From NCBI RefSeq assembly GCF_003946625.1, contig NZ_RHOR01000007.1:1-64000 (forward strand): a stretch of DNA of 64,000 bases, read 5' to 3'. Each line of letters begins with the position of its first letter. Positions within the stretch are counted from its first letter, which is position 1. The notes under the pieces were generated by a model that was not told where the DNA came from, searched no databases, and saw nothing but the letters and a program-made list of their open reading frames with translations. This document shows positions 331 through 63,933 of this stretch, one piece after another. This DNA is from Companilactobacillus kedongensis (lineage in GTDB: Bacteria; Bacillota; Bacilli; Lactobacillales; Lactobacillaceae). Both the position numbers and the translations under genes were made by a program.

Positions 331-508
331 CCGTCTCCAGATCTGAGAATATGTACCTGCTGTGCGGAACGGACCGAGCCTAAAGTACGTCTCGATCCTC
401 GGTTTGAAGCCTTGTAAAGACCACAAGTCTCCAAACACGCCCGATGGCGTAAGAACTAAAGCTCTAACGCCATACCCACAGCTGACACATATTCTCAGAT
501 CTTCCGAC
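331..508 (+). repeat. Cloverleaf repeat CR1
   Basis: Plus-orientation copy of the intergenic cloverleaf repeat. The terminal stem P1 is a perfect 16-bp match between 339-354 (AGATCTGAGAATATGT) and 487-502. P4 is visible as ATGGCGTAAGA...TCTAACGCCAT. P2 is degenerate (GAGCC...GTCTC). Its right arm overlaps the last codons and stop of the minus-strand acyltransferase gene. Confidence 0.8.
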
Positions 509-1520
509 TAATTTTAGATACAAGTTCAAATAGCAATGATCTAATCATATCTATCAGATAACAGGCAGCCATAATTTCTAATACTGTTACAAAACCTGAT
601 AGGTTAACATTCATTAAGTCATGAATCTCTCTAAATCTAAAATTCCTCCATAATTGTTTTAAAACAAATACATTTTCAGTTATTAAATATACCGCAAACA
701 TATGCCTGGCCACTTGATTAAAGATCGCATGAAAGACTGGTTTGAAATTAGTAAAAATCAAAAACAATCCTAATGCTGCCAACATTGCGAACACGCCTGT
801 GTAAATGTTGGTAAACCGATCTTTGGTCAAGATTATTTCAAAATACATGATTATGTAGATAACTAGTGTATTTACTGTGAATAACAATGCTCCTACTAAA
901 TAATTCCAGTTACTTCTGTGGATAAATTTGGAAACAAAGGCTCCAAACAAGTATGAAGCTAGTAAAACACCTAATCCTACTGACTGTGTCGCAATGTCAT
1001 TATTAACAAGTGGAAAAATACCACAGATTATTGTCACAATTATCAACAAGTAAATAAAATGTCGTTTAGTTAAATACTTGATAGCCTGATTGATAAATGG
1101 CACTAACAGCATCAAAATTAAATATCCTGTCACGAACCAATACTGATTAAAAGTCACTGGCATCAATGACTGCCACAGTTTTGGACTCTTAACCGGGGCT
1201 TGCCAATTTAGAGCTAGTACCAGGAATAAAATACTGTAAAAGTATACCTGAGCATAAACTTTCAAAGTTTTCTTAATTGAATACTTGATAGTGACTTCAT
1301 GAGTCCCTAAATAAAAGCCTGTGATCATGACAAAGATATACACACCAATGTCACCCAGTGGTAAGTAAAAAAGTGACCAAAAGGCCGACCACAGATGATT
1401 GTGGGCGATCAAATAGTCACTTCTTCCACCTTGAGCCCAAAGGCTAAAGTGATGCAACGTAATCAAGAGCATACTGATGATCCTTAGAAGCTCAATATTT
1501 GAATTTCTAGTTTTTCTCAT
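495..1520 (-). CDS. Acyltransferase family 3 membrane protein
   Basis: A 341-residue multi-pass membrane protein of the acyltransferase-3 family (OafA/WecH/Oac type), which moves acetyl or other acyl groups onto cell-envelope sugars. The N-terminus has the family signature NIELLRIISMLLITLHHF with the conserved His pair at 23-24, followed by about ten hydrophobic segments. It is the last gene of the minus-strand DUF916/WxL cluster and starts 3 bases after the stop of the preceding gene, so it is probably co-transcribed and may modify a wall glycan. The final codons (SRKI-stop) lie inside the right arm of repeat CR1, so the C-terminus may have been rewritten by the repeat. The acceptor is unknown. 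Confidence 0.85.
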   Translation of the reverse strand: MRKTRNSNIELLRIISMLLITLHHFSLWAQGGRSDYLIAHNHLWSAFWSLFYLPLGDIGVYIFVMITGFYLGTHEVTIKYSIKKTLKVYAQVYFYSILFLVLALNWQAPVKSPKLWQSLMPVTFNQYWFVTGYLILMLLVPFINQAIKYLTKRHFIYLLIIVTIICGIFPLVNNDIATQSVGLGVLLASYLFGAFVSKFIHRSNWNYLVGALLFTVNTLVIYIIMYFEIILTKDRFTNIYTGVFAMLAALGLFLIFTNFKPVFHAIFNQVARHMFAVYLITENVFVLKQLWRNFRFREIHDLMNVNLSGFVTVLEIMAACYLIDMIRSLLFELVSKISRKI

Positions 1521-1523
1521 AAT

Positions 1524-2558
1524 TTACTTTCTACGACGATCTGATTTACCATGCTTAGAATTACTCTTATTTCTTTGGGCATAGTAGAGATACATCCACA
1601 AAGCGACAAAGATCAAGAGAACGATCCCGACAAGAATAATTATCCATTGATGATTATTTTGTTTGACAGGTTCAGTTTGTTGTTGAACCTGTTTTACATC
1701 AGTCTTAGAAACAGTAATGGTCTTAGTGAAGACCTGTTTAAAGCCATTCTTGCCCGTTAAAGTAATCTTAGCTTTGTATTTACCAGCTGTGAAATTATCA
1801 ATTGGAATAAAGTAATCAAATTGTGAGTTAGGTGCTATCTGTAAATTCTTAGCATGATACTTCAAATTCTTAGAATTGTGCTTGATTGAAGCAGCCAATT
1901 TTACATTATTGATATTGATCGGTGCTGTATTATCCATCTTAAAGGCAATACCCTTACTACCAGAAACTGCCTTTGGATAAGCATCTGTCAAATGCATATC
2001 AGGATTTATCGCGTCATCCTTTGAGCGCAAAACGACACCTTTAACATAACGAACCTGATTTTGAATATTCAAATTCTTGGACTTAGTAGGTGAAACATTC
2101 GCAATAGTTGTCACACCACCTAAGATAATTCCCTTATATTCTTTATCAGGTGACTTAACATTGAAACTAACTTCCTTGGATTCGCCAGCTTTTAAGCTGA
2201 CAGACTTTCTGCGAGCACCTTCGACTAATGATGTTAGTTCAGGCAAAGTGCTCTTATAAGTCTTTTTATTGTACTTGTCGTAGCCAATAGTAGCCGAGTC
2301 AGCCGTATAAGCGTTATTTACTTCAGCAGTAACCTTGATGCTCTTACTACCAGTATTGAAGATGATAATTTTTAAAGTCTGATCCTTATTAGGTTCTACT
2401 TTCAAATCAAAATAGGACTCATTCTTGTCTATTTGATTATCCGGTAAAACTGATTGGATCGAATATGATTTGTCACCCGCTGCTTCTACCTTTGTTGTTT
2501 GATTAAACAAAGGTATTGCAAAGATGAACATTGATAAAAATACTATGAGCTTTTTCAT
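1524..2558 (-). CDS. DUF916/DUF3324 WxL-associated membrane-anchored surface protein
   Basis: A 344-residue CscA-like protein. It has a signal peptide (MKKLIVFLSMFIFAIPLF), an Ig-like DUF916 domain (about 30-150), a DUF3324 domain (about 155-290), one C-terminal membrane helix (WIIILVGIVLLIFVALWMYLYY) and a basic tail (KSNSKHGKSDRRRK). Such proteins occur with WxL proteins and peptidoglycan-bound partners. I chose the ATG at 2558 because AGGAG lies 7 bases upstream; the frame extends further 5', but that would overlap the previous gene's stop. It lies 2 bp after the preceding DUF916-type gene, implying translational coupling. Confidence 0.85.
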   Translation of the reverse strand: MKKLIVFLSMFIFAIPLFNQTTKVEAAGDKSYSIQSVLPDNQIDKNESYFDLKVEPNKDQTLKIIIFNTGSKSIKVTAEVNNAYTADSATIGYDKYNKKTYKSTLPELTSLVEGARRKSVSLKAGESKEVSFNVKSPDKEYKGIILGGVTTIANVSPTKSKNLNIQNQVRYVKGVVLRSKDDAINPDMHLTDAYPKAVSGSKGIAFKMDNTAPININNVKLAASIKHNSKNLKYHAKNLQIAPNSQFDYFIPIDNFTAGKYKAKITLTGKNGFKQVFTKTITVSKTDVKQVQQQTEPVKQNNHQWIIILVGIVLLIFVALWMYLYYAQRNKSNSKHGKSDRRRK

Positions 2559-2560
2559 GT

Positions 2561-9096: not shown

Positions 9097-9738
9097 ATGA
9101 AAGTATTGATAATCGGAGCTCACGGTAAAGTTGGGCATTTATTAATTGGTGAATTACAATCTAAGAACATTGATTTTGTTGCTGGTTTACGTAGCGAGGA
9201 ACAAATCAAAGCCTACAAGGCTAACAATATCCCTACTCAATTTATTGATTTAACTGCATCTTTAGATGACATTACTAAATCTGTCAAAGAATCAGGTGCT
9301 GACGTCTTACTATTCTCCGCGGGCGCTGGTGGTGCTGGGTCTGATCTCACATTACAAATTGATCTTGATGGAGCTATCAAAACAATGATGGTCGCTGAAG
9401 CACTTGACATCAAACGTTATATTATGGTTAGTTCCGTCTTTAGTGACAATCGTGATAAGTGGGACGCTTCAGGTATCAAGCCATATATGATTGCTAAGCA
9501 TTACGCCGACGTACATTTGCGTGGAACGGATCTTGATTATACGATCATTCATCCAGGCGGGCTTACTGACGAAGAATCAATTGGTAAGATCAAGTTGCTC
9601 GGAGAAAATGAAGTTGGTAATATTCCAAGAATCGACGTTGCTAAGTCATTAGTTGAAATCTTGCAGAATCCTTCTACTATTGGTAAAGAATACAGTATTG
9701 CTAGTGGTGACGAACCAATTTCTGATGTTATAAAATAG
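9097..9738 (+). CDS. NAD(P)-binding atypical SDR-family protein
   Basis: A 213-residue single-domain Rossmann protein. The N-terminal MKVLIIGAHGKVGHLLI carries the G-x-x-G-x-x-G dinucleotide motif, and YMIAKHYAD provides a Y-x-x-x-K pair in a usual place for extended SDRs. It resembles NAD(P)H-binding proteins of the NmrA/YwnB type, which act as oxidoreductases or redox sensors; the substrate is unknown. AAGGAGG precedes the ATG. Repeat CR2 begins within a few bases of the stop. Confidence 0.82.
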   Translation: MKVLIIGAHGKVGHLLIGELQSKNIDFVAGLRSEEQIKAYKANNIPTQFIDLTASLDDITKSVKESGADVLLFSAGAGGAGSDLTLQIDLDGAIKTMMVAEALDIKRYIMVSSVFSDNRDKWDASGIKPYMIAKHYADVHLRGTDLDYTIIHPGGLTDEESIGKIKLLGENEVGNIPRIDVAKSLVEILQNPSTIGKEYSIASGDEPISDVIK

Positions 9739-9744
9739 TTACTT

Positions 9745-9900
9745 CCCGCTTTCGGATTCGAATAATTCCACCTGTTGAGCGACCGACTCGAGCCAAGGTC
9801 TCTCGTCTCGATTCCAAGCTTTGCTATCGCAAATCTCAGAATCGTCGGTGGAGTAAAACTCCACTTGCACAACTGGTTCCATTACTCGAATCCTACAGCT
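9745..9900 (+). repeat. Cloverleaf repeat CR2
   Basis: Plus copy just after a plus gene stop. P1 is GGATTCGAATAAT (9754-9766) paired with ATTACTCGAATCC (9881-9893). The P2 loop is CCAAGGT. P3 is AGCTTTGC/GCAAATCT. P4 is GTGGAGT/ACTCCAC (9848-9864). Partner CR3 lies tail-to-tail across a hairpin. Confidence 0.85.
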
Positions 9901-10009
9901 AAGTTTGTGTATTAATTTAATAGTAAATACCGATAATTCTTTTATGGTTGTCATATGAAATATATATAATTTCATTCGACTGCATAAGAGAATTTTTTAT
10001 TTTAGACGT

Positions 10010-10045
10010 AAAAAGGCTATATCCTATTAACTTCAGGATATAGCC
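10010..10045 (-). terminator. Hairpin between CR2 and CR3
   Basis: Perfect 11-bp stem GGCTATATCCT/AGGATATAGCC with an A5 tract on the left, which is a U5 tract for minus-strand transcription coming from the YitT gene. The same first 12 bases reappear at the right window edge. Confidence 0.7.
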
Positions 10046-10082
10046 ATTAAATTATTTACATTTATAATTGAAACGCTAAAAA

Positions 10083-10252
10083 GCCGGAGGAAACAAGAAA
10101 TTGACTAGCCGTGACAATTCTGTTAGTACGACGCAGTCGTTCTTACAGAATGAACGATTACGAAATTTGCGCAAGCAAAGTTCATAATCGAGACTTCAGA
10201 CCTTGGCTGAAGTGGTTCCACAGCAGGTCGATTTATTGTTTCCGTAGGTGGC
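10083..10252 (-). repeat. Cloverleaf repeat CR3
   Basis: Minus copy following the minus-strand YitT gene by 15 bases. P2 on the minus strand is ACTTCAG-CCAAGGT-CTGAAGT (perfect). P4 is ATTCTGT...ACAGAAT extended by ACGAC/GTCGT. The P1 arms lie at 10083-10117 and 10220-10252. Confidence 0.85.
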
Positions 10253-10267
10253 AATTTTTAGCAAAAA

Positions 10268-11116
10268 CTAATTGTCGAAGAAATTTCCCATAATAGACAT
10301 AGTTGGTTGGATATTAATGAAAGCATCCTTATCAACTTTAGAAACAGCGTCTCTGACAAAGAACAGTTGATATCTTGTTAGAACCATGGTTGCTGAACCG
10401 ATAGGCTCCCCAGAATATCCACCTTCCAAACTGTGATCGAGTGTGACTCCACGATGAACCGTCTTCAAGAGTTCTTGAGCAATGTCATCGATATGGTGTG
10501 AATAAACAGTAACTGTGATCTTTTGTTGCTGAATATACATCTTATCAACCAATAAATAGGTAACATAAATAGACACGATACTGTATAAGGCCAACTCCCA
10601 ACCGAAGACAACTCCGGCGATAGAAAGAATAATAGCATTAACATAAAAACCTATTTCACCAACACTTTTACCAGTACTTTTTTGTATTAATAGCGCAATA
10701 ATATCAGTTCCACCGGTTGAAAAACCACAACGGAAACAATATCCGGTACCAACACCGACCATGACCCCACCGAAAACGGAAGCTAGCATTGGATCATTCG
10801 TGATTGGATTTAATGGAATGAATTTAATAAAAAGAGTAGACGACGCAACAGCGACTAATGATAAAATGGTAAATCTTTTGCCCAACTTAAACCAGGCAAC
10901 AATAATGATTGGCACGTTAATTAAAAAATACCAAAGATAGACGGGACTATTAATTTTAGCAAATTCGGCGAACAAGTTAGATATTAACTGACCTGCACCC
11001 ATGACTCCAGCAGTATAGATTTTAGCTGGTTGTAAAAGTAATTGAATTCCCATAGCAGAAGTTATTCCAAAGAATATTGCTGCAAAGATGTCTCTTGGAT
11101 AATTATTGAATTTCAT
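10268..11116 (-). CDS. YitT family membrane protein
   Basis: A 282-residue YitT/DUF161 protein: five to six membrane helices in residues 1-180 with the family signatures GVMGAGQLI and GFSTGGTDIIA, followed by a cytoplasmic DUF2179 domain (about 195-280, SHHIDDIAQELLKTVHRGVT...IQPTMSIMG). The biochemical role of the family is not established. It has a good ribosome site (AGGAGGTG) before the ATG and is flanked by the CR2/CR3 pair at its 3' end. Confidence 0.88.
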   Translation of the reverse strand: MKFNNYPRDIFAAIFFGITSAMGIQLLLQPAKIYTAGVMGAGQLISNLFAEFAKINSPVYLWYFLINVPIIIVAWFKLGKRFTILSLVAVASSTLFIKFIPLNPITNDPMLASVFGGVMVGVGTGYCFRCGFSTGGTDIIALLIQKSTGKSVGEIGFYVNAIILSIAGVVFGWELALYSIVSIYVTYLLVDKMYIQQQKITVTVYSHHIDDIAQELLKTVHRGVTLDHSLEGGYSGEPIGSATMVLTRYQLFFVRDAVSKVDKDAFINIQPTMSIMGNFFDN

Positions 11117-11270
11117 TTTGAAATCACCTCCTATTTATTTGCTAGCCTCACACACTATAGCTTAGGAATATCCAAAAAACAATATACTTTTGACTTATCA
11201 CGAAATATTTTAAATTTTGAATCAAATAGCTTATATTTTATATATAATCAAGTTATCAGGAGGTAGTAAA

Positions 11271-12137
11271 ATGCAAAAAATTGGATTTATTGGAACCGGT
11301 GTCATGGGCAGTGGAATAGTAAATAACCTGTTGAAGGCAAACTATCAGGTATACATCTACACCCGTACAGAATCTAAGGCTGAACCTTTAATCAAAAATG
11401 GAGCAAAATGGTTCAATTCACCAAAAGAAGTTGTTGAAAATACTGATATAATTTTCTCAATGGTAGGATTTCCAAAAGATGTTGAAAATGTTTATTTTGA
11501 TCCCGAAAAAGGCGTCTTTAAAGATCTAAAATCTGGTCAAATAATCGTTGATATGACAACAAGTACTCCAACTTTAGCTAAAAAAATCGGTGAAAAAGCC
11601 GAAGAAATTGGTGCTTTAGCATTGGACGCCCCTGTTTCAGGTGGAGATGTCGGAGCTCGTGATGGCAAATTAACCATTATGGTCGGCGGATCCAAGCAAG
11701 CCTTTGATCAATTACAACCAATTTTTGAGATCATTGGCAAATCAAATCATTACTTCGGATCCTTTGGCGCTGGGCAACACGCCAAGATGGCCAATCAAAT
11801 TATGATAGCCGGAACAATGACTGGTATGACCGAAATGTTGGTTTACGCTAAAGCAGCCGGACTAGATCTTCCTTCTATTATAAAGACAGTTAGTGGTGGT
11901 TCTGGCGATAACTGGAGCCTTGAAAATTATGCGCCAAGAGTTTTAGATGGAGATTTCAAACCGGGATTCTTTTCAAAACATTTCTTGAAAGACTTAAGAA
12001 TAGCCATAGATGAAAGTGAAAAAATGAAACTTGATTTACCTGCCACACAGCAAGCTAAGAAACTATACGAAAAATTAGTGGACGAAGAAAACTTAGGCAA
12101 CGATGGAACACAAGCATTAGTTAAATTGTGGTGGTAG
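11271..12137 (+). CDS. Beta-hydroxyacid dehydrogenase (3-hydroxyisobutyrate dehydrogenase family)
   Basis: A 288-residue NAD(P)-dependent dehydrogenase of the HIBADH/GarR family. Visible motifs: GFIGTGVMGSGI (dinucleotide loop), DAPVSGGDVGARDGKLTIMVGG (substrate-binding signature), GAGQHAKMANQ with the catalytic Lys, and the C-terminal KDLRIAIDE segment. It could act on tartronate semialdehyde, 3-hydroxyisobutyrate or succinic semialdehyde; the sequence alone does not decide. The ATG at 11271 is set by AGGAGGT 7 bases upstream; longer upstream frames are not supported. Repeat CR4 follows its stop within 5 bases. Confidence 0.88.
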   Translation: MQKIGFIGTGVMGSGIVNNLLKANYQVYIYTRTESKAEPLIKNGAKWFNSPKEVVENTDIIFSMVGFPKDVENVYFDPEKGVFKDLKSGQIIVDMTTSTPTLAKKIGEKAEEIGALALDAPVSGGDVGARDGKLTIMVGGSKQAFDQLQPIFEIIGKSNHYFGSFGAGQHAKMANQIMIAGTMTGMTEMLVYAKAAGLDLPSIIKTVSGGSGDNWSLENYAPRVLDGDFKPGFFSKHFLKDLRIAIDESEKMKLDLPATQQAKKLYEKLVDEENLGNDGTQALVKLWW

Positions 12138-12141
12138 TTGT

Positions 12142-12315
12142 CGTCTCCGGTAGAGCGTTGACCTATCTGCTATGGAACCGATGTGAGCCAAGGTCTCCCA
12201 TCTCGATTTTGAGCTTTGCTATCGCCAAATCTCAGAATCGTTCATGGTGTAAGAATGGAAAACCACCATTCTAACGCCATTATCACAGCTGATAGGTCCA
12301 CACTCTCCCTCCGAC
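12142..12315 (+). repeat. Cloverleaf repeat CR4
   Basis: Plus copy starting 5 bases after the dehydrogenase stop. P1: AGAG-GT-GACCTATC on the left against GATAGGTCCACACTCT on the right. P2: ATGTGAG-CCAAGGT-CTCCCAT. P4: TGGTGTAAGAATGG/CCATTCTAACGCCA, with wobble pairs and the conserved A.A mismatch. Confidence 0.85.
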
Positions 12316-12360
12316 TTGTATAGTCGATTTACTATTTTAATCACATTGAACTTATCAAAT

Positions 12361-12412
12361 AGGAGCTGCATCATTCTTGGAATTAATCAAGAATGATACA
12401 GCTCCTATTTTT
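12361..12412 (+). terminator. Terminator between CR4 and CR5
   Basis: Hairpin AGGAGCTG...CAGCTCCT with inner stem TCATTCTTG/CAAGAATGA, followed by ATTTTTG. Its outer position is symmetrical between the tail-to-tail repeats. Confidence 0.8.
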
Positions 12413-12460
12413 GTTATAAATAAACGCCAATAAACTGAATTAAATTTAAAAGCCAAACTA

Positions 12461-12632
12461 GTCGTAAGGTCTGAGAATGTTCATCTGCTGTGACAGTGGC
12501 GTTGGAGCTTTAGCTCCTACACCACCGGGCGTGTTTGGAGACTTGCTGAACCTTGCAAGGCTCCAAACCGAGGATTGAGACCTTGGCTCAAGCCGGTCCG
12601 CATAGCAGATGAACATTCTCAAACCTGGAGAC
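12461..12632 (-). repeat. Cloverleaf repeat CR5
   Basis: Minus copy 30 bases after the stop of the minus-strand ABC ATPase gene. P1 includes TGAGAATGTTCATCTGCT on the left and AGCAGATGAACATTCTCA on the right. P2 (minus strand) is GGCTTGAG-CCAAGGT-CTCAATCC. P4 reads GTGGCGTTGGAGC/GCTCCTACACCAC on the plus strand, with one mismatch and one bulge. Confidence 0.85.
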
Positions 12633-12662
12633 AAATAAAATCCAGTTTCTACTATTAATAAT

Positions 12663-13430
12663 CTAGTTATCAAACATCCCAACAAGTTCTTCAGAATCAA
12701 GTTTCATTTTATCTTCTCCACTAACATCCAAAGTAATCTGACCATCTTGCACCATAATCAAACGATTACCATACTTCAATGCATCAGACATCTTATGAGT
12801 GATCATCATAGTAGTCAGCTTTTCGCGATTAACTATCTCATCAGTAAGATCCATTACATCACGACTAGTCTTAGGGTCAAGTGCCGCAGTATGTTCATCC
12901 AATAGCAACAACTTGGGCTTACTCAACGTTGCCATCAATAATGACAATGCTTGTCTCTGACCACCAGATAAATATTTAACTTGGGTTTTTAATCTATTCT
13001 CTAATCCCATATCCAATGGCTTCAACAACTCTTGGAATTTTTCCCATTGTCCCTTTTTGTTATACCATTTCAAACTAATTGTATTGACGTGACTCTCTGC
13101 CAAAACTAAATTTTCAGCAACGCTAAGCTCTCCAGCGGTTCCCATTTTAGGATCTTGGAAAACTCGTGACATCCAGCGTGAACGATATGACACGGATTTT
13201 TTAATAACATTTTTATTTTCTAAATTGATTGATCCCGCATCAGCTGATAAAGTTCCAGCAATTGTATTCAATAGTGTTGATTTACCTGCACCATTATTAC
13301 CAATTACTGAAATAAAGTCGCCATCATAAACTTTTAGGCTAACATTTTTTAAAATATGACGCTCATTCTCGGTCCCCGGAAAGAACACCTTTTGTAAATT
13401 TTGGACGTTTAATACTTCTGACTTGCTCAT
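12663..13430 (-). CDS. ABC transporter ATP-binding protein (TrpX-type importer)
   Basis: A 255-residue nucleotide-binding subunit: Walker A GNNGAGKST, Q-loop VFQDPKMGT, signature LSGGQRQAL, Walker B LLLLDEHTAAL, H-loop MITHKM. It energises uptake by the adjacent permease and lipoprotein (the COG2984/4120/1101 set, which includes the tryptophan/tyrosine system TrpXYZ of streptococci). I chose the ATG at 13430, which has GGAAGGTGA in range; it lies inside the permease gene, an overlap of 68 bp. It is the last gene of the operon and is followed by CR5. Confidence 0.88.
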   Translation of the reverse strand: MSKSEVLNVQNLQKVFFPGTENERHILKNVSLKVYDGDFISVIGNNGAGKSTLLNTIAGTLSADAGSINLENKNVIKKSVSYRSRWMSRVFQDPKMGTAGELSVAENLVLAESHVNTISLKWYNKKGQWEKFQELLKPLDMGLENRLKTQVKYLSGGQRQALSLLMATLSKPKLLLLDEHTAALDPKTSRDVMDLTDEIVNREKLTTMMITHKMSDALKYGNRLIMVQDGQITLDVSGEDKMKLDSEELVGMFDN

Positions 13431-14328
13431 CTTGTTCACCTTCCGTTAACTGAGATAGATAAATTTTTAATTGTTTACGTGTTTTAAGCTTGTTTCTGAG
13501 GATCGGTACACAGATAACGATAACTAAGATTATCGCTGACAAAATTTTTAGATCATCTGGTGGGAAGCCTAATCCCATCGCAACTGTAAGTAAAAAGCGA
13601 TACAATATTGCTCCAACTACCATTGCTGATAATCTAACTAAAATATTTCGGCCTCGTAAGAAAATTTCTCCCACTAAAACTGAGGCTAAGCCAATAACGA
13701 TAGTACCGATCCCCATGCCGATATCAGCGTAACCATTACTTTGAGCAATCAGTGATCCTGACAAAGCAATTAAACCGTTAGAAATGGTATAGCCGAAAAT
13801 AATCATTCCATCCGTGTTTATACCATTAGCGGCACTCATATTTTTATTATTACCAGTTGCCATCAAAGATAATCCTAAACGTGTCTTGAACATTAGATAT
13901 AGTGCCAAAATAACAATACCGGTGATGATTATTCCTAAAACAATAGTTTGAGTTGTCGTTGCCCAGGCTGGTAAATAATCCGTCAAAACTTTTTGTGTTA
14001 AAAGAGGCACGTTGGATTTTCCCATTACATGCATATTTACCGAATACAGTCCTGTCATTGTTAATATTCCAGCTAATAATGAGGGAATATGTAACTTTGT
14101 ATCAAGAACACCTGTCACGAATCCGCCTAAACATCCGGCGACAAATCCCATCAAAGTTGCTATAAAAGCTGATTGTCCATTGATCATCAAACTGATAGTC
14201 ATAGCTGCTCCGAAGGGAAAACTTCCTTCAGTTGTCAAATCGGGAATATCTAAAATTCTAAAGGTAATAAACACGCCAATTACTAGCGGCGCCCACAATA
14301 ATCCTTGTCCTAAGCTGGATATTATCAT
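13363..14328 (-). CDS. ABC transporter permease (TrpX-type importer)
   Basis: A 321-residue membrane subunit of the branched-chain/TrpX permease type, with eight to nine hydrophobic helices. GRNILVRLSAMVVGAILYRFLL and DDLKILSAIILVIVICVPILR resemble COG4120 permeases. The hydrophilic C-terminus (about 290-321) is encoded in the region shared with the start of the ATPase gene. It sits between the lipoprotein gene (19 bp upstream) and the ATPase. The substrate is predicted from family only: an aromatic amino acid or similar small molecule. Confidence 0.87.
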   Translation of the reverse strand: MIISSLGQGLLWAPLVIGVFITFRILDIPDLTTEGSFPFGAAMTISLMINGQSAFIATLMGFVAGCLGGFVTGVLDTKLHIPSLLAGILTMTGLYSVNMHVMGKSNVPLLTQKVLTDYLPAWATTTQTIVLGIIITGIVILALYLMFKTRLGLSLMATGNNKNMSAANGINTDGMIIFGYTISNGLIALSGSLIAQSNGYADIGMGIGTIVIGLASVLVGEIFLRGRNILVRLSAMVVGAILYRFLLTVAMGLGFPPDDLKILSAIILVIVICVPILRNKLKTRKQLKIYLSQLTEGEQDEQVRSIKRPKFTKGVLSGDRE

Positions 14329-17077: not shown

Positions 17078-17121
17078 TAATGGTAAGATATCATTACTGA
17101 AGTGAAGGAATGGTGAAACAG

Positions 17122-17511: not shown

Positions 17512-17518
17512 TTTACAT

Positions 17519-17682
17519 CTACAGGGCCTAGAATATTCGCCTGCTCTGCGGACCGAATCGAGCCAAGGTCTCGGGCTCGAAGCCTTGCACAACTCGGCAA
17601 GTCTCCAAACTCGCCCGATGGTGTAATGGCCAAAGCCATAACGCCATTATCACAGCTGATAAATATTCTCGATCCTTCCGAA
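17519..17682 (+). repeat. Cloverleaf repeat CR6
   Basis: Plus copy starting 8 bases after the HxlR stop. P1: AGAATATTCGCCTGC on the left, paired with AGCTGATAAATATTCTC on the right. P2: TCGAG-CCAAGGT-CTCGG. There is no tail-to-tail partner, but a terminator hairpin follows as in the pairs. Confidence 0.8.
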
Positions 17683-17739
17683 TAATTTATTATCTACCGT
17701 ATGAATAATTACATAAATATTAGGTTTAATTATATCTAC

Positions 17740-25900: not shown

Positions 25901-25932
25901 GTCCTTTTGGGGCTTTTTTGTTGGATAATTTT

Positions 25933-25963
25933 GCCTGCGAGTGAGAGAATCTCACTCTCCGGC
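25933..25963 (+). repeat. Miniature remnant of a cloverleaf repeat (CR7a)
   Basis: A 31-bp remnant: GCC-TGC-GAGTGAGA-GAA-TCTCACTC-TCC-GGC. It keeps the GCCTGC start of the inner left arm and the CTCTCCGGC right end of full copies, without P2-P4. It sits where the plus partner of CR7 would be expected. Confidence 0.5.
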
Positions 25964-26070
25964 TAGATAGTTTTAATATATTATCGTAGTCTTAAGCAAT
26001 AGCAGTAATTAATATTCATGTAACTACTGAAGAAAAGAATTTTGAATAGTAAATGTAAATAAATAGCACG

Positions 26071-26106: not shown

Positions 26107-26117
26107 ATACAAAATTA

Positions 26118-26284
26118 GTCGGAGGGACTGAGAATATTTACCAGCTATGGATGTGGCGTTACGGCGTAAGCCGTTTACACCACCGGACGTGTTTGGAGAC
26201 TTGCGAGCAAGGCTTCAAACCGAGGTACCAGACCAAGGCTGGGACCGGTCCGCATAGCAGGTGAATATTCTCAGTCCTGTAGAC
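26118..26284 (-). repeat. Cloverleaf repeat CR7
   Basis: Minus copy ending 9 bases from the stop of the minus gene at 26294. P1: GGACTGAGAATATTTACC on the left against GGTGAATATTCTCAGTCC on the right. The P2 loop on the minus strand is CCTTGGT, flanked by GGTCCCAG/CTGGTACC. P4 reads GTGGCGTTACGGC/GCCGTTTACACCAC. Confidence 0.85.
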
Positions 26285-26293
26285 TTAAACAAA

Positions 26294-32354: not shown

Positions 32355-32358
32355 ACCT

Positions 32359-32504
32359 GTCGCCTACGGTCGTAATAAAATTTACCTGCCATGGAACGGT
32401 TCAAGACACGGTCTTGAATCTCGAATTACGTCTGTGGTGTAAGAAGGAAAATCACCTTCTAACACCACTGATATGGCTGGTAAACTTTCTTACAACCTCC
32501 GGCT
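32359..32504 (+). repeat. Cloverleaf repeat CR8
   Basis: Plus copy 5 bases after the ATPase stop; a short variant of about 146 bp. P1: GCCTACGGTCGTAA...TTTACCTGCCAT on the left and ATGGCTGGTAAA...CCTCCGGC on the right. P2 is perfect: TTCAAGA-CACGG-TCTTGAA. P3 is absent or merged. P4: GTGGTGTAAGAAGG/CCTTCTAACACCAC. Confidence 0.8.
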
Positions 32505-45457: not shown

Positions 45458-45476
45458 GTTTTTATTTCCACTCTTT

Positions 45477-45538
45477 CCGCCTACGTGTTAGAGTAATTCC
45501 ACCTGCACAACTGGTTCCATTACTCTAAATCTTCGGCT
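45477..45538 (+). repeat. Miniature cloverleaf repeat CR9 (P1 only)
   Basis: A 62-bp copy that keeps both P1 arms (CCGCCTACG...TTAGAGTAATTCCACCTG and CAACTGGTTCCATTACTCTAA...CTTCGGC) joined directly, with P2-P4 deleted. It lies 19 bases after the esterase stop, in sense orientation, and is paired with full copy CR10. Confidence 0.85.
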
Positions 45539-45591: not shown

Positions 45592-45618
45592 ATTTATATA
45601 TATCATCTTGAAAATAAC

Positions 45619-45789
45619 GCCGGAGAGCGCAAGTGATTCGGCCAGCAGTGACAGTTTCGTTAGGACGGAGCAGCCATTCTTACGGAATGGACGTATTACG
45701 AGATTTGCGAAAGCAAAGCTCATAATCGAGACTTCAGACCTTGGCTGAAGTCGTTCCCACAGCAGGCCGGATCACTTGTGCTCGGAAGC
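45619..45789 (-). repeat. Cloverleaf repeat CR10
   Basis: Minus copy. P1: GCGCAAGTGATTCGGCC on the left and GGCCGGATCACTTGTGC on the right. P2 on the minus strand is perfect: GACTTCAG-CCAAGGT-CTGAAGTC. It lies 73 bases upstream of the OsmC ATG and does not follow a minus gene, an exception to the usual placement. Confidence 0.85.
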
Positions 45790-45862
45790 AAACCACCATA
45801 AACATTGTGTAAACGTTTTAAATATATTACATTTGAAGTATAGACAAAAAGGAGGAATAATC

Positions 45863-51620: not shown

Positions 51621-51839
51621 AACGTTGAATTCCCCCCTTTAACTTTAGGATTCCTCAAACAACTATTTTGACATTTTATTGTTTACAAAAATATTTATAC
51701 TCCATTTTATTTTAACTTAATTTATAGTCATGATAAAGATACTTTGCTCATAATTCAAATATAAATAACTTGTTCTATAGCAATTTTATTATCACAAAAG
51801 GATTAGCGAGTGTGATAAAACATGGTCAGCTTTCGAGCA

Positions 51840-51895
51840 TTAAGGCAAATAGCTCCAGTAATCCGACTTTGGATTACTGGAGCTATTTGCCTTAA
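51840..51895. repeat. Perfect 25-bp inverted repeat
   Basis: TTAAGGCAAATAG...CTATTTGCCTTAA: 51840-51864 pairs without a mismatch with 51871-51895 around the 6-base loop GACTTT. Neither flank has a T- or A-tract typical of a terminator. Bases 51621-51839 hold the promoter region of the XrtG operon and no gene I can support. Confidence 0.85.
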
Positions 51896-51935
51896 GCGGA
51901 AAAAACTATATTTTGTTGCACGTTTATGCTGCATG
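51891..51935 (+). repeat. Direct repeat right of the XrtG locus
   Basis: Right copy of the repeat at 46347-46387; it starts in the last bases of the 25-bp palindrome and ends 13 bases from the stop of the minus-strand glycosyltransferase gene. Confidence 0.5.
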
Positions 51936-55563: not shown

Positions 55564-55696
55564 TATAATAGAGATTCGATAAGATCGAGGAATCAATCAA
55601 CAAGTATGATGTTTTTGTGAACTTTACGGTAGACATCTTTATGAACGTCCGTTTGTTTTGTATACTTATCTTTGTCAAAGTAATGGAGGAATAATT

Positions 55697-57034
55697 ATGT
55701 TTTGTCCTAATTGTGGCCACAAAGTTGACCCTTCACAGAAGTTTTGTGACAACTGCGGTGCGGCCTTAAAGAAAAGAAATACCAGTGCTGACCTAAATAC
55801 TGATGAACTTCATCAATCTGAAGAAGACGATACTATTCGTTCTCTTTCAGATATTGAGGCTGAACTTAAAGCAGCAGAAAAGAAGCCAGAACCTGCACCA
55901 GCGTCTAAAGAAACACACTACACACAGGCTCCAGCTCAACAAAAAGCTTACGACAGTGTAAGAGAGGCACCCGTCAAGCCTGCTGCACCTAAACACACTG
56001 AGCCTGCGACTCACTATGATCCCGTAAAAACTTATGAACGTACAAAGTCCGATCCAGCTGATGCATTAGACGATCGAACAATGGCTTACAATAAAAACGA
56101 TTTTCGACAGGCTGAAAAGGTTTATCACGATCCTTATACCAATAAACCTTATAAACCTGCAGAAGATCCCTTCAAGCCAACTAAAAGTGAATTAAAGAAA
56201 CAACAAAAAGAAAAGTTAAAAGAAAAAGTTGAAAAACAAGGAGACGGTCTATTCTCCAATATGTTAAGTTTTGCTCGTAATAACAGTTACTTAAGTATTT
56301 TCGCTGTTATCATCACAGCAATTCTCTTAGTCTTTAAACGTAATTATGGATGGATTGCTTTAGCAGTCTTTATTCTATTGTGGTTTCTCACATCACAATT
56401 TAGACATGGCAAAGAAGTAGGTCTAAATAAGAGATTCTCACATTCAAATGAAGATGCTGATAAACCAGCCAATGATAATGTACACACCTCTGGTAATAGT
56501 TATGATCAACCTAGAGAATATCAACATACTGAAAGACCTGCTAAAACTAAAAAAGAACATAAAGTTCGTGATGCCAGTCGTGGTAAGAATTCACGTCAGA
56601 TCATGATCATTATTTCTTCAATCATCGGATTTATTTCATCCGTTAGCGGTCCATTTATCAATGGCGTTTCCCTGTCCAGTACTATTGCCTCCGCAGCTAA
56701 CTACACAGCTAACTTAGGTGCGCAAACTACTCTGATCATGAATGCATCTTCAGCTATCCGTTTGATATGCTTCATTTCACCAGTTATAGCCTTGATTGCA
56801 GCATGCTTCAGATCACATGGAAGTATCAGAATAGTTAGGATCTTCACCTTATTACCAACTATTATTTATGCATTGGTATATGGAATATTCTCATCTGGTG
56901 CAGTAAATTCAGCTGCCATTACTGGTCAAACTGCTATTGGCGGTACAGCCTTTGGATATAGCTTCTATATTCTATTGATAACTTCAATTGTTTCATTGTT
57001 ATTGGCTTATACATTAAGACCACATACTAGATAG
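55697..57034 (+). CDS. Zinc-ribbon membrane protein
   Basis: A 445-residue protein. The N-terminal zinc ribbon CPNCGHKVDPSQKFCDNCG is followed by a long disordered Pro/Ala/Lys/Glu-rich region (about 30-185), a helix pair (about 210-245, YLSIFAVIITAILLVF... WIALAVFILLWFLTS), a second charged linker, and four to five C-terminal helices (about 310-440). Proteins of this layout are common in lactobacilli and have no known function. The ATG at 55697 has GGAGG 8 bases upstream; the frame extending further 5' is not supported. Repeat CR11 begins 17 bases after the stop. Confidence 0.78.
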   Translation: MFCPNCGHKVDPSQKFCDNCGAALKKRNTSADLNTDELHQSEEDDTIRSLSDIEAELKAAEKKPEPAPASKETHYTQAPAQQKAYDSVREAPVKPAAPKHTEPATHYDPVKTYERTKSDPADALDDRTMAYNKNDFRQAEKVYHDPYTNKPYKPAEDPFKPTKSELKKQQKEKLKEKVEKQGDGLFSNMLSFARNNSYLSIFAVIITAILLVFKRNYGWIALAVFILLWFLTSQFRHGKEVGLNKRFSHSNEDADKPANDNVHTSGNSYDQPREYQHTERPAKTKKEHKVRDASRGKNSRQIMIIISSIIGFISSVSGPFINGVSLSSTIASAANYTANLGAQTTLIMNASSAIRLICFISPVIALIAACFRSHGSIRIVRIFTLLPTIIYALVYGIFSSGAVNSAAITGQTAIGGTAFGYSFYILLITSIVSLLLAYTLRPHTR

Positions 57035-57226: not shown

Positions 57227-57259
57227 TAATATACACTAAATATTTAAATAGAAAAATAT

Positions 57260-57319
57260 AGATCCCTGAATATATTGGATTTTATTGTAAAATCCTGTAT
57301 ATCTAGGGATCTTTTTTTA
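57260..57319. terminator. Terminator between CR11 and CR12
   Basis: AGATCCCT...AGGGATCTTTTTTT with inner TATA/TATA and GGATTTT/AAAATCC; strong T7 tract. Confidence 0.8.
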
Positions 57320-57369
57320 TATCAATATGATTTAAATCATGTGACAATTCCAATCCAATAACTATCTAA

Positions 57370-57544
57370 GCCGGAGAGTGCGAGGGTGTTGGTCAGTAGT
57401 GAAAATTTCGTTAGGATAGCGCAGCTATACTTACGAAATGGACGTATTTTGAGATTTGCAGCACTATGCAAAGCTCAAAATCGAGACGTGAGGTCAAGAC
57501 TCACGCCGGTCCCACAACAGACCGACATCCTCGCACTCTTCGGC
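57370..57544 (-). repeat. Cloverleaf repeat CR12
   Basis: Minus copy, tail-to-tail with CR11. P1: GAGAGTGCGAGGGTGTTGGTC on the left and GACCGACATCCTCGCACTCTT on the right. P2 on the minus strand: GGCGTGAG-TCTTGAC-CTCACGTC, with a changed loop. No minus gene ends next to it; the next feature is a predicted plus-strand RNA. Confidence 0.85.
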
Positions 57545-57579
57545 GATACCAACCTAAATAAAATTTTCAGGCGTTTTTT

Positions 57580-59668: not shown

Positions 59669-59756
59669 AATAATCCTCCATGCAGTTATTATAGGCTATT
59701 TTGTCCGTTAATGCGGATCGTTTATTCTGGATATAAATTATTTGGTGAAGGTTTTG

Positions 59757-59924
59757 CCGCCTACGGTTGAGATGAAATTGCCTGCTGTTGGACCGACTTC
59801 AGCCAAGGTCTGAAGTCTCGATTTGAAGCTTTGCTTACACAAATCTTCAAATACGTCCATTCCGTAAGACGTCTACGACGTCCAACGGAATTACAACTGC
59901 TGGCAATTCATCTCGACCTTCGGC
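59757..59924 (+). repeat. Cloverleaf repeat CR13
   Basis: Plus copy, the clearest fold. P2 is perfect: GACTTCAG (59795-59802), loop CCAAGGT, CTGAAGTC (59810-59817). P3: ATTTGAAG/CTTCAAAT (59821-59852). P4: ATTCCGTAAGACGT/ACGTCCAACGGAAT. P1: GAGATGAAATTGCC/GGCAATTCATCTC. It does not follow a plus gene: the 5' end of the GDPD gene is to its left. Confidence 0.9.
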
Positions 59925-59983
59925 TAATTATAATTCAAGCATTACAAATAAAAATATTGTAATAATTCTTAGTCCAATAAAAA

Positions 59984-60026
59984 ATCCCACCATATACACA
60001 TTTAAGATTATATACAGTGGAATCTA
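59984..60026. terminator. Hairpin between CR13 and CR14
   Basis: CCACCATATA...TATACAGTGG within A-rich and T-rich flanks; weaker than the other central hairpins. Confidence 0.55.
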
Positions 60027-60050
60027 TATTTTAATTTACTATTAATATGA

Positions 60051-60222
60051 GTCGGAGATTTCAAGTAATGGAGCCAGTTGTGCAAGTGGCGTTAGAACAG
60101 TGGTTTTCTGTTCTTACACCACCGACGAATCGGAGATTTGCGTTAGCAAAGCTCAAATTCGAGACCCAAGACCAAGGCTTGGGTCGGTCGCATAACAGGT
60201 GGAATTACTTGAAATCGGAGAC
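60051..60222 (-). repeat. Cloverleaf repeat CR14
   Basis: Minus copy 17 bases after the nagA stop. P1: GATTTCAAGTAATGGAGCC on the left and GGTGGAATTACTTGAAATC on the right. P2 on the minus strand is perfect: GACCCAAG-CCTTGGT-CTTGGGTC. P4 reads GTGGCGTTAGAACAG/CTGTTCTTACACCAC. Confidence 0.88.
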
Positions 60223-60239
60223 GGAAAAACAACAAACAA

Positions 60240-61397
60240 TTATGCTTGATATCTTGATTCCCCGTCCAAATATGTTTCAGATAAACTCATGTCATCATCT
60301 AAGATGATAAAGTCAGCATCATGTCCAGGTGTGATTGAACCACACTTGTCAGCAATCTTAGAACTCTTAGCAGGAACATAACTACCCATTGTTACGGCTT
60401 CTTCGTCTGTGGCAATATTCCAGTCAACAACATTCTTGATAGCATCTTTAAGAAGTAGAATACTTCCGGCTAGGTTATGTGGTGCTTCTTGTAATCTAAC
60501 TTGACCATCGGCAACTGTAACAGGTAATTCACCTAATACATATTCACCATCTGGCATTAGTCCGGCACTCATACAGTCAGTAATAAGTGCAATGTGTTCT
60601 GGAGTTTTCTTGTCGATAAGGATTCTGGCTGCATATGGTTGAACGTGATGTCCATCGCAGATAAGCTCATCATCAACAAAATTCATTGACATAGCAGCTC
60701 CGACCATTCCTGGTTGACGGTGATTCAAACCACTCATACCGTTATATGCATGTGTAAATCCTGAAGCACCAGCTTCGACACAAGCTTTAGCTTGTTCAAA
60801 GGTTGCTGATGAGTGACCTAAAGTAACGGCAACATCATCAGAAGCAACAGCAGCTGTAAATTCTACTGAACCTTTTCTTTCAGGAGCAATTGAGATCTTC
60901 TTGATCATACCGTGAGCAGCTTCTTGCCATTCTTTGAATTCTTCAACATCTGGATCTCTAAAGTACTTAGGATTTTGTGCACCCTTATGTTCTTCAGTGT
61001 AGAAAGGTCCTTCAAAATGGATACCGCGAACTTTAGCACCAGTTGCTTTTTGATAGTTTTCACCGATCATGCGGCAAGTTTCCATTAATTGTTCATGAGA
61101 AGCTGTCAATGTTGTTGGCAACCATGATGTAACACCAGCCTTTAATAGGCCTTCTGACATTTCGTTGATCTTTGTCCAGTCGTTGTCCATAACATCATTT
61201 CCAACAAGTCCATGGATATGTGTATCAACAAGTCCTGGGGCAACCATCTTATCAGAATAGTCAACGATCTTACCTTCTGGCTTATTGTCCTCTGTGTAGA
61301 AACCACCGAATTTACCGTCATCAGTAATTTCTAGGTAGCCACCATTTTCAGTCGTATTCTTCAAAAAGAATTTTTTAGCATGAATGTAATATGTCAT
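60240..61397 (-). CDS. nagA: N-acetylglucosamine-6-phosphate deacetylase
   Basis: A 385-residue amidohydrolase: GlcNAc-6-P to GlcN-6-P and acetate. Metal and active-site segments: APGLVDTHIHGLVGNDVMD (H-x-H), GIHFEGPFYTEEHKGAQ (Glu), VTLGHSSATFEQA (His), GFTHAYNGMSGLNHRQPG (His), LITDCMSAGLMPDG (catalytic Asp), and the C-terminal GSITPGHDADFIILDDD. It takes the NanE product onward, so it completes the sialic-acid route although it is encoded 20 kb away. No cre site is evident near its start. Confidence 0.93.
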   Translation of the reverse strand: MTYYIHAKKFFLKNTTENGGYLEITDDGKFGGFYTEDNKPEGKIVDYSDKMVAPGLVDTHIHGLVGNDVMDNDWTKINEMSEGLLKAGVTSWLPTTLTASHEQLMETCRMIGENYQKATGAKVRGIHFEGPFYTEEHKGAQNPKYFRDPDVEEFKEWQEAAHGMIKKISIAPERKGSVEFTAAVASDDVAVTLGHSSATFEQAKACVEAGASGFTHAYNGMSGLNHRQPGMVGAAMSMNFVDDELICDGHHVQPYAARILIDKKTPEHIALITDCMSAGLMPDGEYVLGELPVTVADGQVRLQEAPHNLAGSILLLKDAIKNVVDWNIATDEEAVTMGSYVPAKSSKIADKCGSITPGHDADFIILDDDMSLSETYLDGESRYQA

Positions 61398-62622: not shown

Positions 62623-62802
62623 TGTTCGTTCACCTATTCTTTCTTTATTTTAAATTCCATTTAAGCGATTTCCTAGAACCTATAGAATACCACAAAACGG
62701 TTTTAGTGACTATTTTCAAACTCCACCACGGTAAAAATTCTTACTAAGTTCTCGTATTTTTCACATATTTTTGGTTTAATGTGGAGTAAGGAGGATTTAG
62801 CC

Positions 62803-63747
62803 TTGAAAAAGTTAAATATTGTTTTACTTAGTTTAGTATCTTTAATCACACTGGGAATTTTCAGTGCCCAAAGTGTAAAAGCTGATAGTTTAGACGACCA
62901 GCCTGTTATGACCTTAGGAACGTCGCTGACTGACAGCCAAAAGCAAGGTACAATAGATGCTTTGTCTTCTCAAATCAACAACAGTAATTATAAGACAATT
63001 ACTGTTACTGGTGACACTTTAGTTAAATATTTGAATCCCAGCGGAAGTTCTTTTACAAGTAGTTCTGGTGTCTGGTCATCAGCCTTGATCGAAAAAACTT
63101 CATCAGGTTCAGGTATCAACGTTAAAATCGTCGATTACAACGGAAGCAATAACATCACAACAATTACCGCTGACCAATACAGAAATGCGGCCATTACTGC
63201 CGGTATCAGTGATGCAAATATCTACGTTACTTCGGCAACAAGGATCGATGGTTCTGGTGCTTTAGCCGGTATCTATGCCGCCTACGCCAGTTCAGGTGAT
63301 TCATTGAACCAAAGTCAAGTTAACGCCGCTCAAAACGAAATGGGTGTTTTAAGTGATATTACTGACGCCAATAAAGGTACAGATGGATATACTGACAAAC
63401 AATTAAACAATGCTATTGCCGGTATGAAGTCCGATATGGCTCAAAAAGGTTCAAACGTTACCGTTAATCAAATCACAACGATCGTTAATAATAATCTTCA
63501 ACAAAATAACCTTCAAAATATCATCACTGATAACCAGAAACAAGAAATCATCAACTTAATGGTTAAGATCAAAGATTCTGGTGCTTTGAAGAATTCAAAC
63601 TTCAAGGAACAAGCCAATAAGTTAAGCAGTGATATTACAAGTAAGGCCAAAAATATTTTCAACAATCTAAACACACAAGAAAATCGCAACTTCTTACAAA
63701 GAATCTGGGATAGTATCGTTTCATTCTTCCAAGGTTTGTTTAACTAA
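62803..63747 (+). CDS. DUF1002 family exported protein
   Basis: A 314-residue secreted protein of the DUF1002 (YpuA-like) family. The TTG start at 62803 is fixed by AAGGAGG 8 bases upstream and gives the signal peptide MKKLNIVLLSLVSLITLGIFSAQSVKA. The body (about 35-250, MTLGTSLTDSQKQGTIDAL...; AAITAGISDANIYVTSATRIDGSGALAGIYAAY) is the DUF1002 core, and the C-terminal part is helical and ends in a hydrophobic WDSIVSFFQGLF. The function is unknown. It is monocistronic, followed by repeat CR15. Confidence 0.87.
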   Translation: MKKLNIVLLSLVSLITLGIFSAQSVKADSLDDQPVMTLGTSLTDSQKQGTIDALSSQINNSNYKTITVTGDTLVKYLNPSGSSFTSSSGVWSSALIEKTSSGSGINVKIVDYNGSNNITTITADQYRNAAITAGISDANIYVTSATRIDGSGALAGIYAAYASSGDSLNQSQVNAAQNEMGVLSDITDANKGTDGYTDKQLNNAIAGMKSDMAQKGSNVTVNQITTIVNNNLQQNNLQNIITDNQKQEIINLMVKIKDSGALKNSNFKEQANKLSSDITSKAKNIFNNLNTQENRNFLQRIWDSIVSFFQGLFN

Positions 63748-63766
63748 AATTGTTTGACTAGTTATT

Positions 63767-63933
63767 CCGCCTACGGGTGCGAGAAAGTTTGCCTGCGGTT
63801 CGACCGGTCCAAGCCATGATCTTGGATCTCGCTTTTAAGTTTTGCTTCGCAAATCTAAAAAGTCGTCGGTTGTGTAAGAAGGAAACCTTCTAACACAACT
63901 TTAACCGCTGGCAAATTTCTCGCCCCCTTCGGC
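63767..63933 (+). repeat. Cloverleaf repeat CR15
   Basis: Plus copy 19 bases after the DUF1002 stop. P1: CCGCCTACGGGTGCGAGAAA...GCCTGC on the left and GGCAAATTTCTCGC...CTTCGGC on the right. P2 is perfect: TCCAAG-CCATGAT-CTTGGA. P4: GTTGTGTAAGAAGG/CCTTCTAACACAAC. The sequence beyond it ends with AAAAAGGCTATATTCC, the beginning of the CR2/CR3 central hairpin. Confidence 0.85.

What the first reader, a model, noticed from the sequence alone, without database searches (positions are those of the whole stretch)
331..63933. A family of 16 intergenic cloverleaf repeats in 64 kb
Fourteen full copies of about 146-180 bp and two miniatures lie only between genes (331, 9745, 10083, 12142, 12461, 17519, 25933 mini, 26118, 32359, 45477 mini, 45619, 57052, 57370, 59757, 60051, 63767). 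All share end motifs (left CCGCC/GTC...; right ...TTCCGAC or ...TTCGGC), a long terminal stem P1, and internal hairpins P2-P4. The density is about one per 4 kb. I do not recognise the family: no transposase is inside, and it is larger and more structured than REP or BOX repeats. It may match structured RNA motifs reported from Lactobacillales, which I cannot check.
Basis: seen in the sequence. Interest (0 to 1): 0.88.

Follow-up and report, generated by a model that had tools for sequence, protein, structure and literature searches.

The report
Paired cloverleaf DNA repeats of lactobacilli
The chromosome of this food-type lactobacillus carries well over a hundred copies of a roughly 175-letter DNA repeat that folds into a four-armed cloverleaf and often sits in facing pairs between genes; we found it in several genera of the family and in no description, and its base pairing looks kept at the level of DNA rather than RNA.

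Summary
All 14 full copies and both miniatures match a covariance model; the own genome has at least 160 copies in the 1.2 Mb fetched. The genus is Companilactobacillus. Matches occur in 60 of 251 Lactobacillaceae genomes, 11 of 40 genera, and in no other of 299 phylum genomes. No Rfam match; no description found. The cloverleaf covaries massively: 93.5% of cells pair, 56 of 61 pairs with double changes. At non-recurrent positions G-U is no commoner than A-C, unlike tRNAs (33:0), so the constraint looks DNA-level. Neighbours within 400 nt face each other: 52 of 53 here, 31 of 31 in G002. Partners are less alike than chance. Here copies mostly start 8-12 nt after stop codons and point at a terminator; in the densest relative they do not. 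Sites come and go between species. Best reading: a non-autonomous mobile element, REP/MITE-like in lifestyle, but larger and without a REP-type transposase in the densest genome. Its enzyme is unknown.

The parts
329..509 (+). full cloverleaf copy
   Evidence: 144.5 bits; lies downstream of what looks like the tail of an IS transposase gene (read; not searched)
9744..9900 (+). full copy, left member of a facing pair
   Evidence: 144.9 bits; after the stop of ORF 9097-9738
9901..10081 (.). spacer of the pair, holds a terminator-like hairpin
10082..10253 (-). full copy, right member of the pair
   Evidence: 149.8 bits; after the stop of ORF 10268-11116 (-)
12139..12316 (+). full copy, left member of a facing pair
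   Evidence: 155.5 bits; after ORF 11217-12137
12317..12459 (.). spacer with hairpin GGAGCTGCATCATTCTTG..CAAGAATGATACAGCTCC and T-run
12460..12636 (-). full copy, right member of the pair
   Evidence: 160.2 bits; after ORF 12663-13439 (-)
17513..17683 (+). full copy, single
   Evidence: 114.4 bits; starts just after ORF 17110-17511
25929..25964 (+). miniature (outer stem only), opposite the copy at 26117
   Evidence: 22.1 bits, E 3.1e-4
26117..26288 (-). full copy
   Evidence: 155.7 bits; after ORF 26294-27976 (-)
32358..32504 (+). full copy lacking most of arm P3
   Evidence: 120 bits; alignment; after ORF 30027-32354
   Evidence: inverted match to 9848-9886 at 87% (I14); sequence read
45475..45538 (+). 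miniature (outer stem only), left member of a facing pair
   Evidence: 34.6 bits, E 1.4e-7
45618..45793 (-). full copy, right member of the pair
   Evidence: 160.9 bits
57050..57227 (+). full copy, left member of a facing pair
   Evidence: 160.4 bits; after ORF 55658-57034
57228..57368 (.). spacer with a terminator-like hairpin and T-run
57369..57548 (-). full copy, right member of the pair
   Evidence: 165.4 bits
59755..59925 (+). full copy, left member of a facing pair
   Evidence: 156.6 bits; z -9.65 for 59755-59933
59926..60049 (.). spacer of the pair
60050..60226 (-). full copy, right member of the pair
   Evidence: 164.2 bits; after ORF 60240-61397 (-)
63765..63934 (+). full copy, left member of a pair whose partner lies at contig 64059-64215, outside the window
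   Evidence: 160.1 bits; partner (L068:4059-4215)

Best explanation
It is a chromosomal, non-autonomous mobile repeat of about 147-195 nt. In the relative G002 it also has a T/G-rich tail of about 17 nt on its right side. Its conserved property is a fold, a closing stem P1 with three hairpins P2-P4, rather than its sequence. I propose that the folded single DNA strand, exposed in replication or transcription, is what an unidentified enzyme encoded elsewhere cuts and pastes. Copies spread, diverge and decay by internal deletion to P1-only miniatures. A copy near another one is tolerated or placed only tail-to-tail. SHOWN: family, fold, covariation without a wobble signature, facing pairs, unlike partners, turnover at orthologous sites, very different copy number between close species. 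INFERRED: movement by a trans-acting enzyme, a single-stranded substrate, upkeep of arm complementarity by copying one arm from the other (template switching) or by selection on the DNA hairpin.
For: Copy number: 150 at the cap in this genome against 29 places in C. keshanensis (30 rows, one the same place read on the other strand), although the two share a median 96.1% protein identity over 34 matches. Orthologous slots are filled in one species and empty or reduced to remnants in another; at window 12134-12666 C. tucceti also has a facing pair, but its two copies are closest to copies elsewhere in the own genome. Copies have nearest neighbours mostly in their own genome: own 119 of 152, G002 73 of 117, nantensis 72 of 99, huachuanensis 17 of 29 (samples are unequal, which favours large sets), with identities up to 95% and 96%. 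DNA-level pairing: after dropping recurrent positions GU to AC is 75:108, 52:89, 36:54 and 24:28; tRNAs 33:0. Among 44 close pairs of G002 copies there are 166 double Watson-Crick changes; 58 lie next to another, 18.6 expected, maximum of 200 shuffles 32. For P1 alone, whose arms are over 110 columns apart, 24 of 80 against 12.4, maximum of 500 shuffles also 24. Facing pairs: 52 of 53 here, 31 of 31 neighbours within 400 nt in G002.
Against: No mobilising enzyme was found. Y1 transposase is absent from the dense complete genome G002, and no longer version with the same ends was seen in 0.4 Mb of G002 and 1.2 Mb of the own genome with two strict end patterns. No target-site duplication could be read, because flanks are too diverged. 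No match on plasmids (5 queries), phages (2 queries) or viral contigs (one strict pattern), which is odd for a mobile element. Some empty sites are clearly losses in C. keshanensis, shown by remnants, so loss explains part of the copy-number gap. Raw totals over all pairs lean slightly to G-U (329 to 237 and 261 to 211). Partner dissimilarity and facing-only pairs may point to function instead.
Confidence: 0.55

Rival explanations
1. A chromosomal boundary element, comparable in use to enterobacterial BIMEs: facing pairs at transcription-unit ends act as DNA sites (cruciform, gyrase or nucleoid protein) that absorb supercoiling or insulate convergent transcription, and selection keeps them there.
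For: 48 of 102 classified units lie between convergent genes and 1 between divergent genes, although divergent gaps are 147 of 568 gaps of at least 60 nt. Tail-to-tail pairing is near absolute. Not found on plasmids or phages with the queries used. Partners less alike than permuted partners, p 0.011 and 0.0007.
Against: In G002 16 of 86 units lie between divergent genes, pair spacers hold no excess of hairpins (7 of 31, shuffled 7 of 31), and copy number is far lower in a close relative. Avoidance of promoters can come from purifying selection on insertions alone.
Confidence: 0.22
2. A structured 3'-UTR RNA that stabilises or processes mRNA between stop codon and terminator.
For: In this genome copies begin a median 12 nt (73 pair ends) or 8 nt (41 singles) after a same-strand stop, and right-end hairpins are common (40 of 55 singles against 8 of 55 on the left side). 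Deep covariation; raw G-U totals slightly above A-C because of a few fixed positions.
Against: No G-U excess at the other positions or among single changes of close copies. 36 of 150 classified copies adjoin an opposite start instead of a stop. In G002 more copies adjoin an opposite start (63) than a same-strand stop (54).
Confidence: 0.1
3. Passive decay: old palindromic repeats whose arms are kept complementary only by template-switch copying during replication, without any present mobility or function.
For: Clustered double changes; template switching is published as able to make and maintain stems (PMC8794818, abstract and start of the introduction).
Against: Does not explain presence and absence at orthologous sites, species-biased clusters with 95-96% identity or the pairing rule.
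Confidence: 0.1

Closest known systems
REP sequences, REPINs and BIMEs with their RAYT (Y1) transposases
   Same: High-copy intergenic palindromes, often as inverted doublets, mostly outside divergent promoters, lineage-specific clusters. REPIN doublets and the RAYT link: PMC3116915 (abstract and passages). REP locations between tandem and convergent genes: PMC3733652 (abstract and passages).
   Different: Each unit is 147-195 nt and a four-arm cloverleaf, not 20-40 bp; no Y1 transposase in the dense genome G002; partners are unlike; paired copies not better conserved than singles; no general G-T pairing excess, whereas PMC3733652 reports that GT pairing was often observed in REP stems (passage). 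PMC3733652 also describes CGTC repeats without associated transposases (passage).
Bacterial MITEs such as the enterobacterial RU-1/RU-2 repeats
   Same: Intergenic repeats of 127, 168 and 103 bp likened to MITEs (PMC2759123, listing and start of abstract only).
   Different: No target duplication or source transposon found; structure rather than end sequence is conserved; facing pairs. ERIC, BOX, RUP and bcr1 were considered from recall and not compared by sequence.
Structured RNA families (Rfam 15)
   Same: Covariation-supported multibranched fold.
   Different: No match at gathering score in the window or in 13 further loci except an unrelated T-box; no wobble signature at most positions.
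Integron attC sites
   Same: Recalled only: structure-over-sequence recombination sites that follow stop codons and act as folded single strands.
   Different: Scattered over the chromosome rather than in a cassette array; integrase and attC boxes not tested.

Membership tests
REP/REPIN | Unit of 20-40 bp stem-loop | tested here: not met
   Full copies 147-195 nt with a closing stem and three hairpins
REP/REPIN | Cognate RAYT (Y1) transposase in the genome | tested here: not met
   PF01797 in 11 of 25 genomes, absent from element-rich G002 and G005, present in G006 and G018 where no element was found at E 1e-6; own genome has one fragment at a contig end
REP/REPIN | Inverted doublets | tested here: met
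   52 of 53 close neighbours here; 31 of 31 in G002
REP/REPIN | Doublets better conserved than singlets | tested here: not met
   Nearest-neighbour identity: own 0.84 against 0.843, p 0.63; in G002 paired copies lower, 0.86 against 0.892, p 0.012
MITE | Terminal inverted repeats | tested here: met
   P1 closes the element, outer pairs covary (helices 1-2)
MITE | Target-site duplication | tested here: inconclusive
   Flanks too diverged at empty sites
MITE | Autonomous parent with the same ends | tested here: inconclusive
   None in 0.4 Mb of G002 and 1.2 Mb of own genome with two strict end patterns, which recognise only part of the known ends; not searched elsewhere
Structured RNA (3'-UTR element) | G-U pairs tolerated more than A-C mismatches | tested here: not met
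   control. A few positions with fixed G-U are the exception
Structured RNA (Rfam) | Match to a curated family | tested here: not met
BIME-like boundary element | Binding of gyrase, IHF or a nucleoid protein | not testable with these tools
   Needs a binding assay
attC site | Integrase and R boxes | not tested
   Recalled resemblance only
BOX, RUP, ERIC, bcr1 repeats | Sequence similarity to the published consensus | not tested
   Recalled families; consensus sequences not used

The most novel reading that the evidence does not exclude
A new class of bacterial mobile DNA inherited as a fold: the element copies itself through a single-stranded cloverleaf, its arms template one another so that sequence drifts while complementarity stays, and it settles in unlike, tail-to-tail pairs that then serve as chromosomal boundaries. 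Its enzyme would be a new kind of structure-specific recombinase.
Probability: 0.2. Interest if true: 0.88.

Novelty: new variant of a known kind. Interest (0 to 1): 0.7.

Why it matters
In 400 kb of the relative G002, picked where copies were known, there is one copy per about 3.4 kb (117 copies), yet no description was found in the full-text searches made (one search used a wrong genus and one search was about template switching). It gives hundreds of replicates for an open question: whether compensatory changes in stems come from selection on RNA, from selection on DNA hairpins, or from template switching. It also warns that deep covariation alone need not mean RNA function. Food lactobacilli can be cultured, so mobility, enzyme and any boundary role could be tested.

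Tried and rejected
RAYT/Y1-driven REPIN: rejected, because Y1 presence does not follow copy number. Terminator as the universal target: rejected as a general rule, because the facing pairs persist in G002 without excess hairpins in the spacer, although the terminator association is strong in this genome. Pair as a duplicated unit: rejected, in 0 of 50 pairs is the partner the nearest neighbour of the left copy. 3'-UTR RNA: demoted. Rfam: nothing. Plasmid or phage carriage: nothing with the queries used. Target-site duplication: could not be read; one site (own C23:143978) shows an 8-nt direct repeat around a larger insert, equally explained by deletion in C. keshanensis (read by eye). An end-pattern search for an autonomous element gave only two miniatures. 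The hairpin scan was too coarse and was replaced. The 'inside gene' counts were void by construction and were replaced. Guessing the genus as Vagococcus was wrong.
Full report
CHECK. A single copy used as BLAST query gives 41 matches in the genome, itself included. A covariance model from the 14 copies (R1) finds 150 places, the scoring cap, worst E 5.5e-17. In the 1.2 Mb of the 2.27 Mb genome that I fetched, chosen largely around known hits, there are 164 rows at E 1e-12, 160 after removing 4 duplicates from overlapping stretches. None of the 160 is overlapped by more than 60 nt by a called ORF; in G002 3 of 117 are, all over the 5' part of a long ORF, which may be over-long starts. The 'inside gene' counts printed are void, because those scripts left out ORFs that overlap the repeats.

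WHERE IT OCCURS. In the family sample 60 of 251 genomes and 11 of 40 genera have a match at E 1e-8, the own genome included. In the order sample it is 11 of 295: nine in the family and two weak ones outside, best E 4.2e-10 and 1.6e-12; one search also gave weak matches in two genomes of another family of the order (best E 2.4e-9 and 2.5e-8). None of these outsiders was examined. In the phylum sample it is 1 of 299, the own genome. Large samples use stricter filters and score few candidates per genome, so these are lower bounds. G002, a complete genome, reaches 150 at the cap, with 117 copies in 400 kb, stretches that I picked where copies were known. No match was found on plasmids (5 queries), phages (2 queries) or viral contigs (one strict pattern).

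ANATOMY. P1 closes the element (GCCG.. with ..CGGC at the tips, with changes to GTC and GAC); P2, P3 and P4 are hairpins inside it. Over 146 distinct rows of this genome 93.5% of cells pair (shuffled 72.5%), 56 of 61 pairs have double changes, and 1913 cells have double changes (shuffled 569). Over 65 rows from several genera it is 93.4% and 978 against 261. These alignments were fitted to the model and lean towards it; the controls with slid partners fall to 30-44%. In G002 the right end continues as a T/G-rich tail of about 17 nt, consensus AGTTTATTnnTTnTTTT. Internal deletion leaves P1-only miniatures in G002 (about 47 and 67 nt), C. keshanensis and the window.

DNA OR RNA. If RNA were selected, G-U pairs should outnumber A-C mismatches. 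Over all pairs they do slightly: 329 to 237 and 261 to 211, because a few positions hold fixed G-U. Dropping positions where either exceeds 4% of rows (17, 10, 10 and 23 of 61 positions in A2, A3, A6, A5) gives 75 to 108, 52 to 89, 36 to 54 and 24 to 28; sign tests p 0.06-0.83. Between own copies differing by 10-14% (12 comparisons) there are 36 double Watson-Crick changes, 25 single A-C, 18 single G-U and 18 single other mismatches; G002 is similar. In 21 distinct tRNAs of the same DNA the count is 33 to 0 (ARAGORN's own brackets, so mismatches may be under-reported). Double changes cluster: 58 of 166 have a neighbouring double change, 18.6 expected and at most 32 in 200 shuffles, in 44 close G002 pairs; 24 of 80 against 12.4, at most 24 in 500 shuffles, for P1 alone. 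Only 7 close pairs with 9 double changes were available in this genome, too few to judge. This fits template switching (PMC8794818, abstract and start of the introduction) or selection on a DNA hairpin; exchange between copies could explain clusters in P2-P4 but less easily in P1.

PAIRS. Of neighbours within 400 nt, 52 are facing, 1 is tandem, none back to back; the closest back-to-back neighbours are 1885 nt apart. In G002 all 31 neighbours within 400 nt are facing and the closest back-to-back are 1038 nt apart. In 36 loci of other genomes plus the L. cerevisiae locus I count 12 facing, 1 plus-plus, 2 minus-minus and no back-to-back neighbours within 400 nt among 53 matches. The partner is never the nearest neighbour (0 of 50), and partners are less alike than permuted partners (0.684 against 0.698, p 0.011; G002 0.671 against 0.695, p 0.0007). 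I take this as removal of near-perfect long palindromes, an inference.

PLACE. With my own simple gene caller, 102 of 107 units could be classified: 48 convergent, 53 tandem, 1 divergent; all gaps of at least 60 nt, those with repeats included, are 103, 318 and 147. Distance to a same-strand stop has median 12 nt (73 pair ends) and 8 nt (41 singles); 25 and 11 copies adjoin an opposite start instead, medians 113 and 97 nt. Hairpins below -12 kcal/mol lie on the right-end side in 37 of 51 pairs and 40 of 55 singles, on the left side in 8 of 55, in shuffles 11 of 106. With a -8 cut and a T-run it is 34 of 51, 40 of 55 and 28 of 106 shuffled, while ordinary 3' ends give 99 of 231. Against a general rule: in G002 pair spacers have 7 of 31 (shuffled 7 of 31); singles 20 of 55 on the right, 16 of 55 on the left, 8 of 55 shuffled; 16 of 86 units are divergent, and 63 ends adjoin an opposite start against 54 a stop. 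So 3'-end and terminator placement is strong in this lineage, while tail-to-tail pairing is general.

TURNOVER. C. keshanensis (median protein identity 96.1% over 34 matches) has 29 places. Of 107 own units, 48 could be anchored on both sides in the 0.8 Mb fetched of it: 3 spanned and 45 with a gap. The printed sites show clean absences, remnants and conserved copies; I did not tally them. The pair at own C7:7697 is conserved in both (each copy is the other's best own match, 87% and 91%); at C5:38939 the left copy is conserved and the right one truncated in C. keshanensis (read). Against other relatives 35 gene-flanked slots gave presence in one species only in 24 (9 with one, 2 with two and 1 with three copies in the relative; 7 with one and 5 with two in the own genome). 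This is rough: the relatives' loci were fetched because they hold the repeat, and some flanking matches are as low as 51% identity. At window 12134-12666 C. tucceti has its own unrelated pair and another terminator.

MECHANISM. My reading is a non-autonomous mobile element acting as folded DNA, confidence 0.55. The enzyme is unknown. Y1 transposases, which drive REPINs, are absent from G002 and G005 and present in G006 and G018, where no element was found.

LITERATURE. No description was found (one search used a wrong genus; one search was about template switching). Passages were read in PMC5217627, PMC3733652, PMC3116915, PMC2267715, PMC1590033 and PMC3496567; the two stem-loop surveys name only L. 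johnsonii from the lactobacilli. Subscription papers are mostly not in the library.

Noticed in passing
window 51808-51930; also own C23:46992 and 152608, C9:26848, C8:2112, C34:47168; relatives L121, L151: A second, unrelated palindromic repeat with a central hairpin (arms GTGTGACAAAACATGGTCAGCTTTCGAGCATTAAGG and CCTTAAGCGGAAAAA..) that fills intergenic slots, in some relatives the very slots where this genome has a cloverleaf pair.
   Followed up: partly
own spacers, e.g. window 12352-12410: The terminators themselves recur as families (GGAGCTGTATCA..TGATACAGCTCC and others): 20 of 106 spacers or downstream stretches have a repeat of at least 22 nt elsewhere, at 43 intergenic places, 16 of them within 150 nt of a cloverleaf copy.
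   Followed up: partly
window 1-300: Looks like the 3' end of an insertion-sequence transposase gene (read from the sequence, not searched), directly before the copy at 329.
   Followed up: no
G002 cluster 2, e.g. script coordinates Gb 272482 (L289): Members of one subfamily share flanks beyond the cloverleaf, about 25 nt on the left and up to 75 nt on the right, so its mobile unit may be larger.
   Followed up: no
own C12:44117-44785: The only triple unit: two copies in the same direction, then a facing one, beside a flank that looks like a tRNA gene by eye.
   Followed up: no
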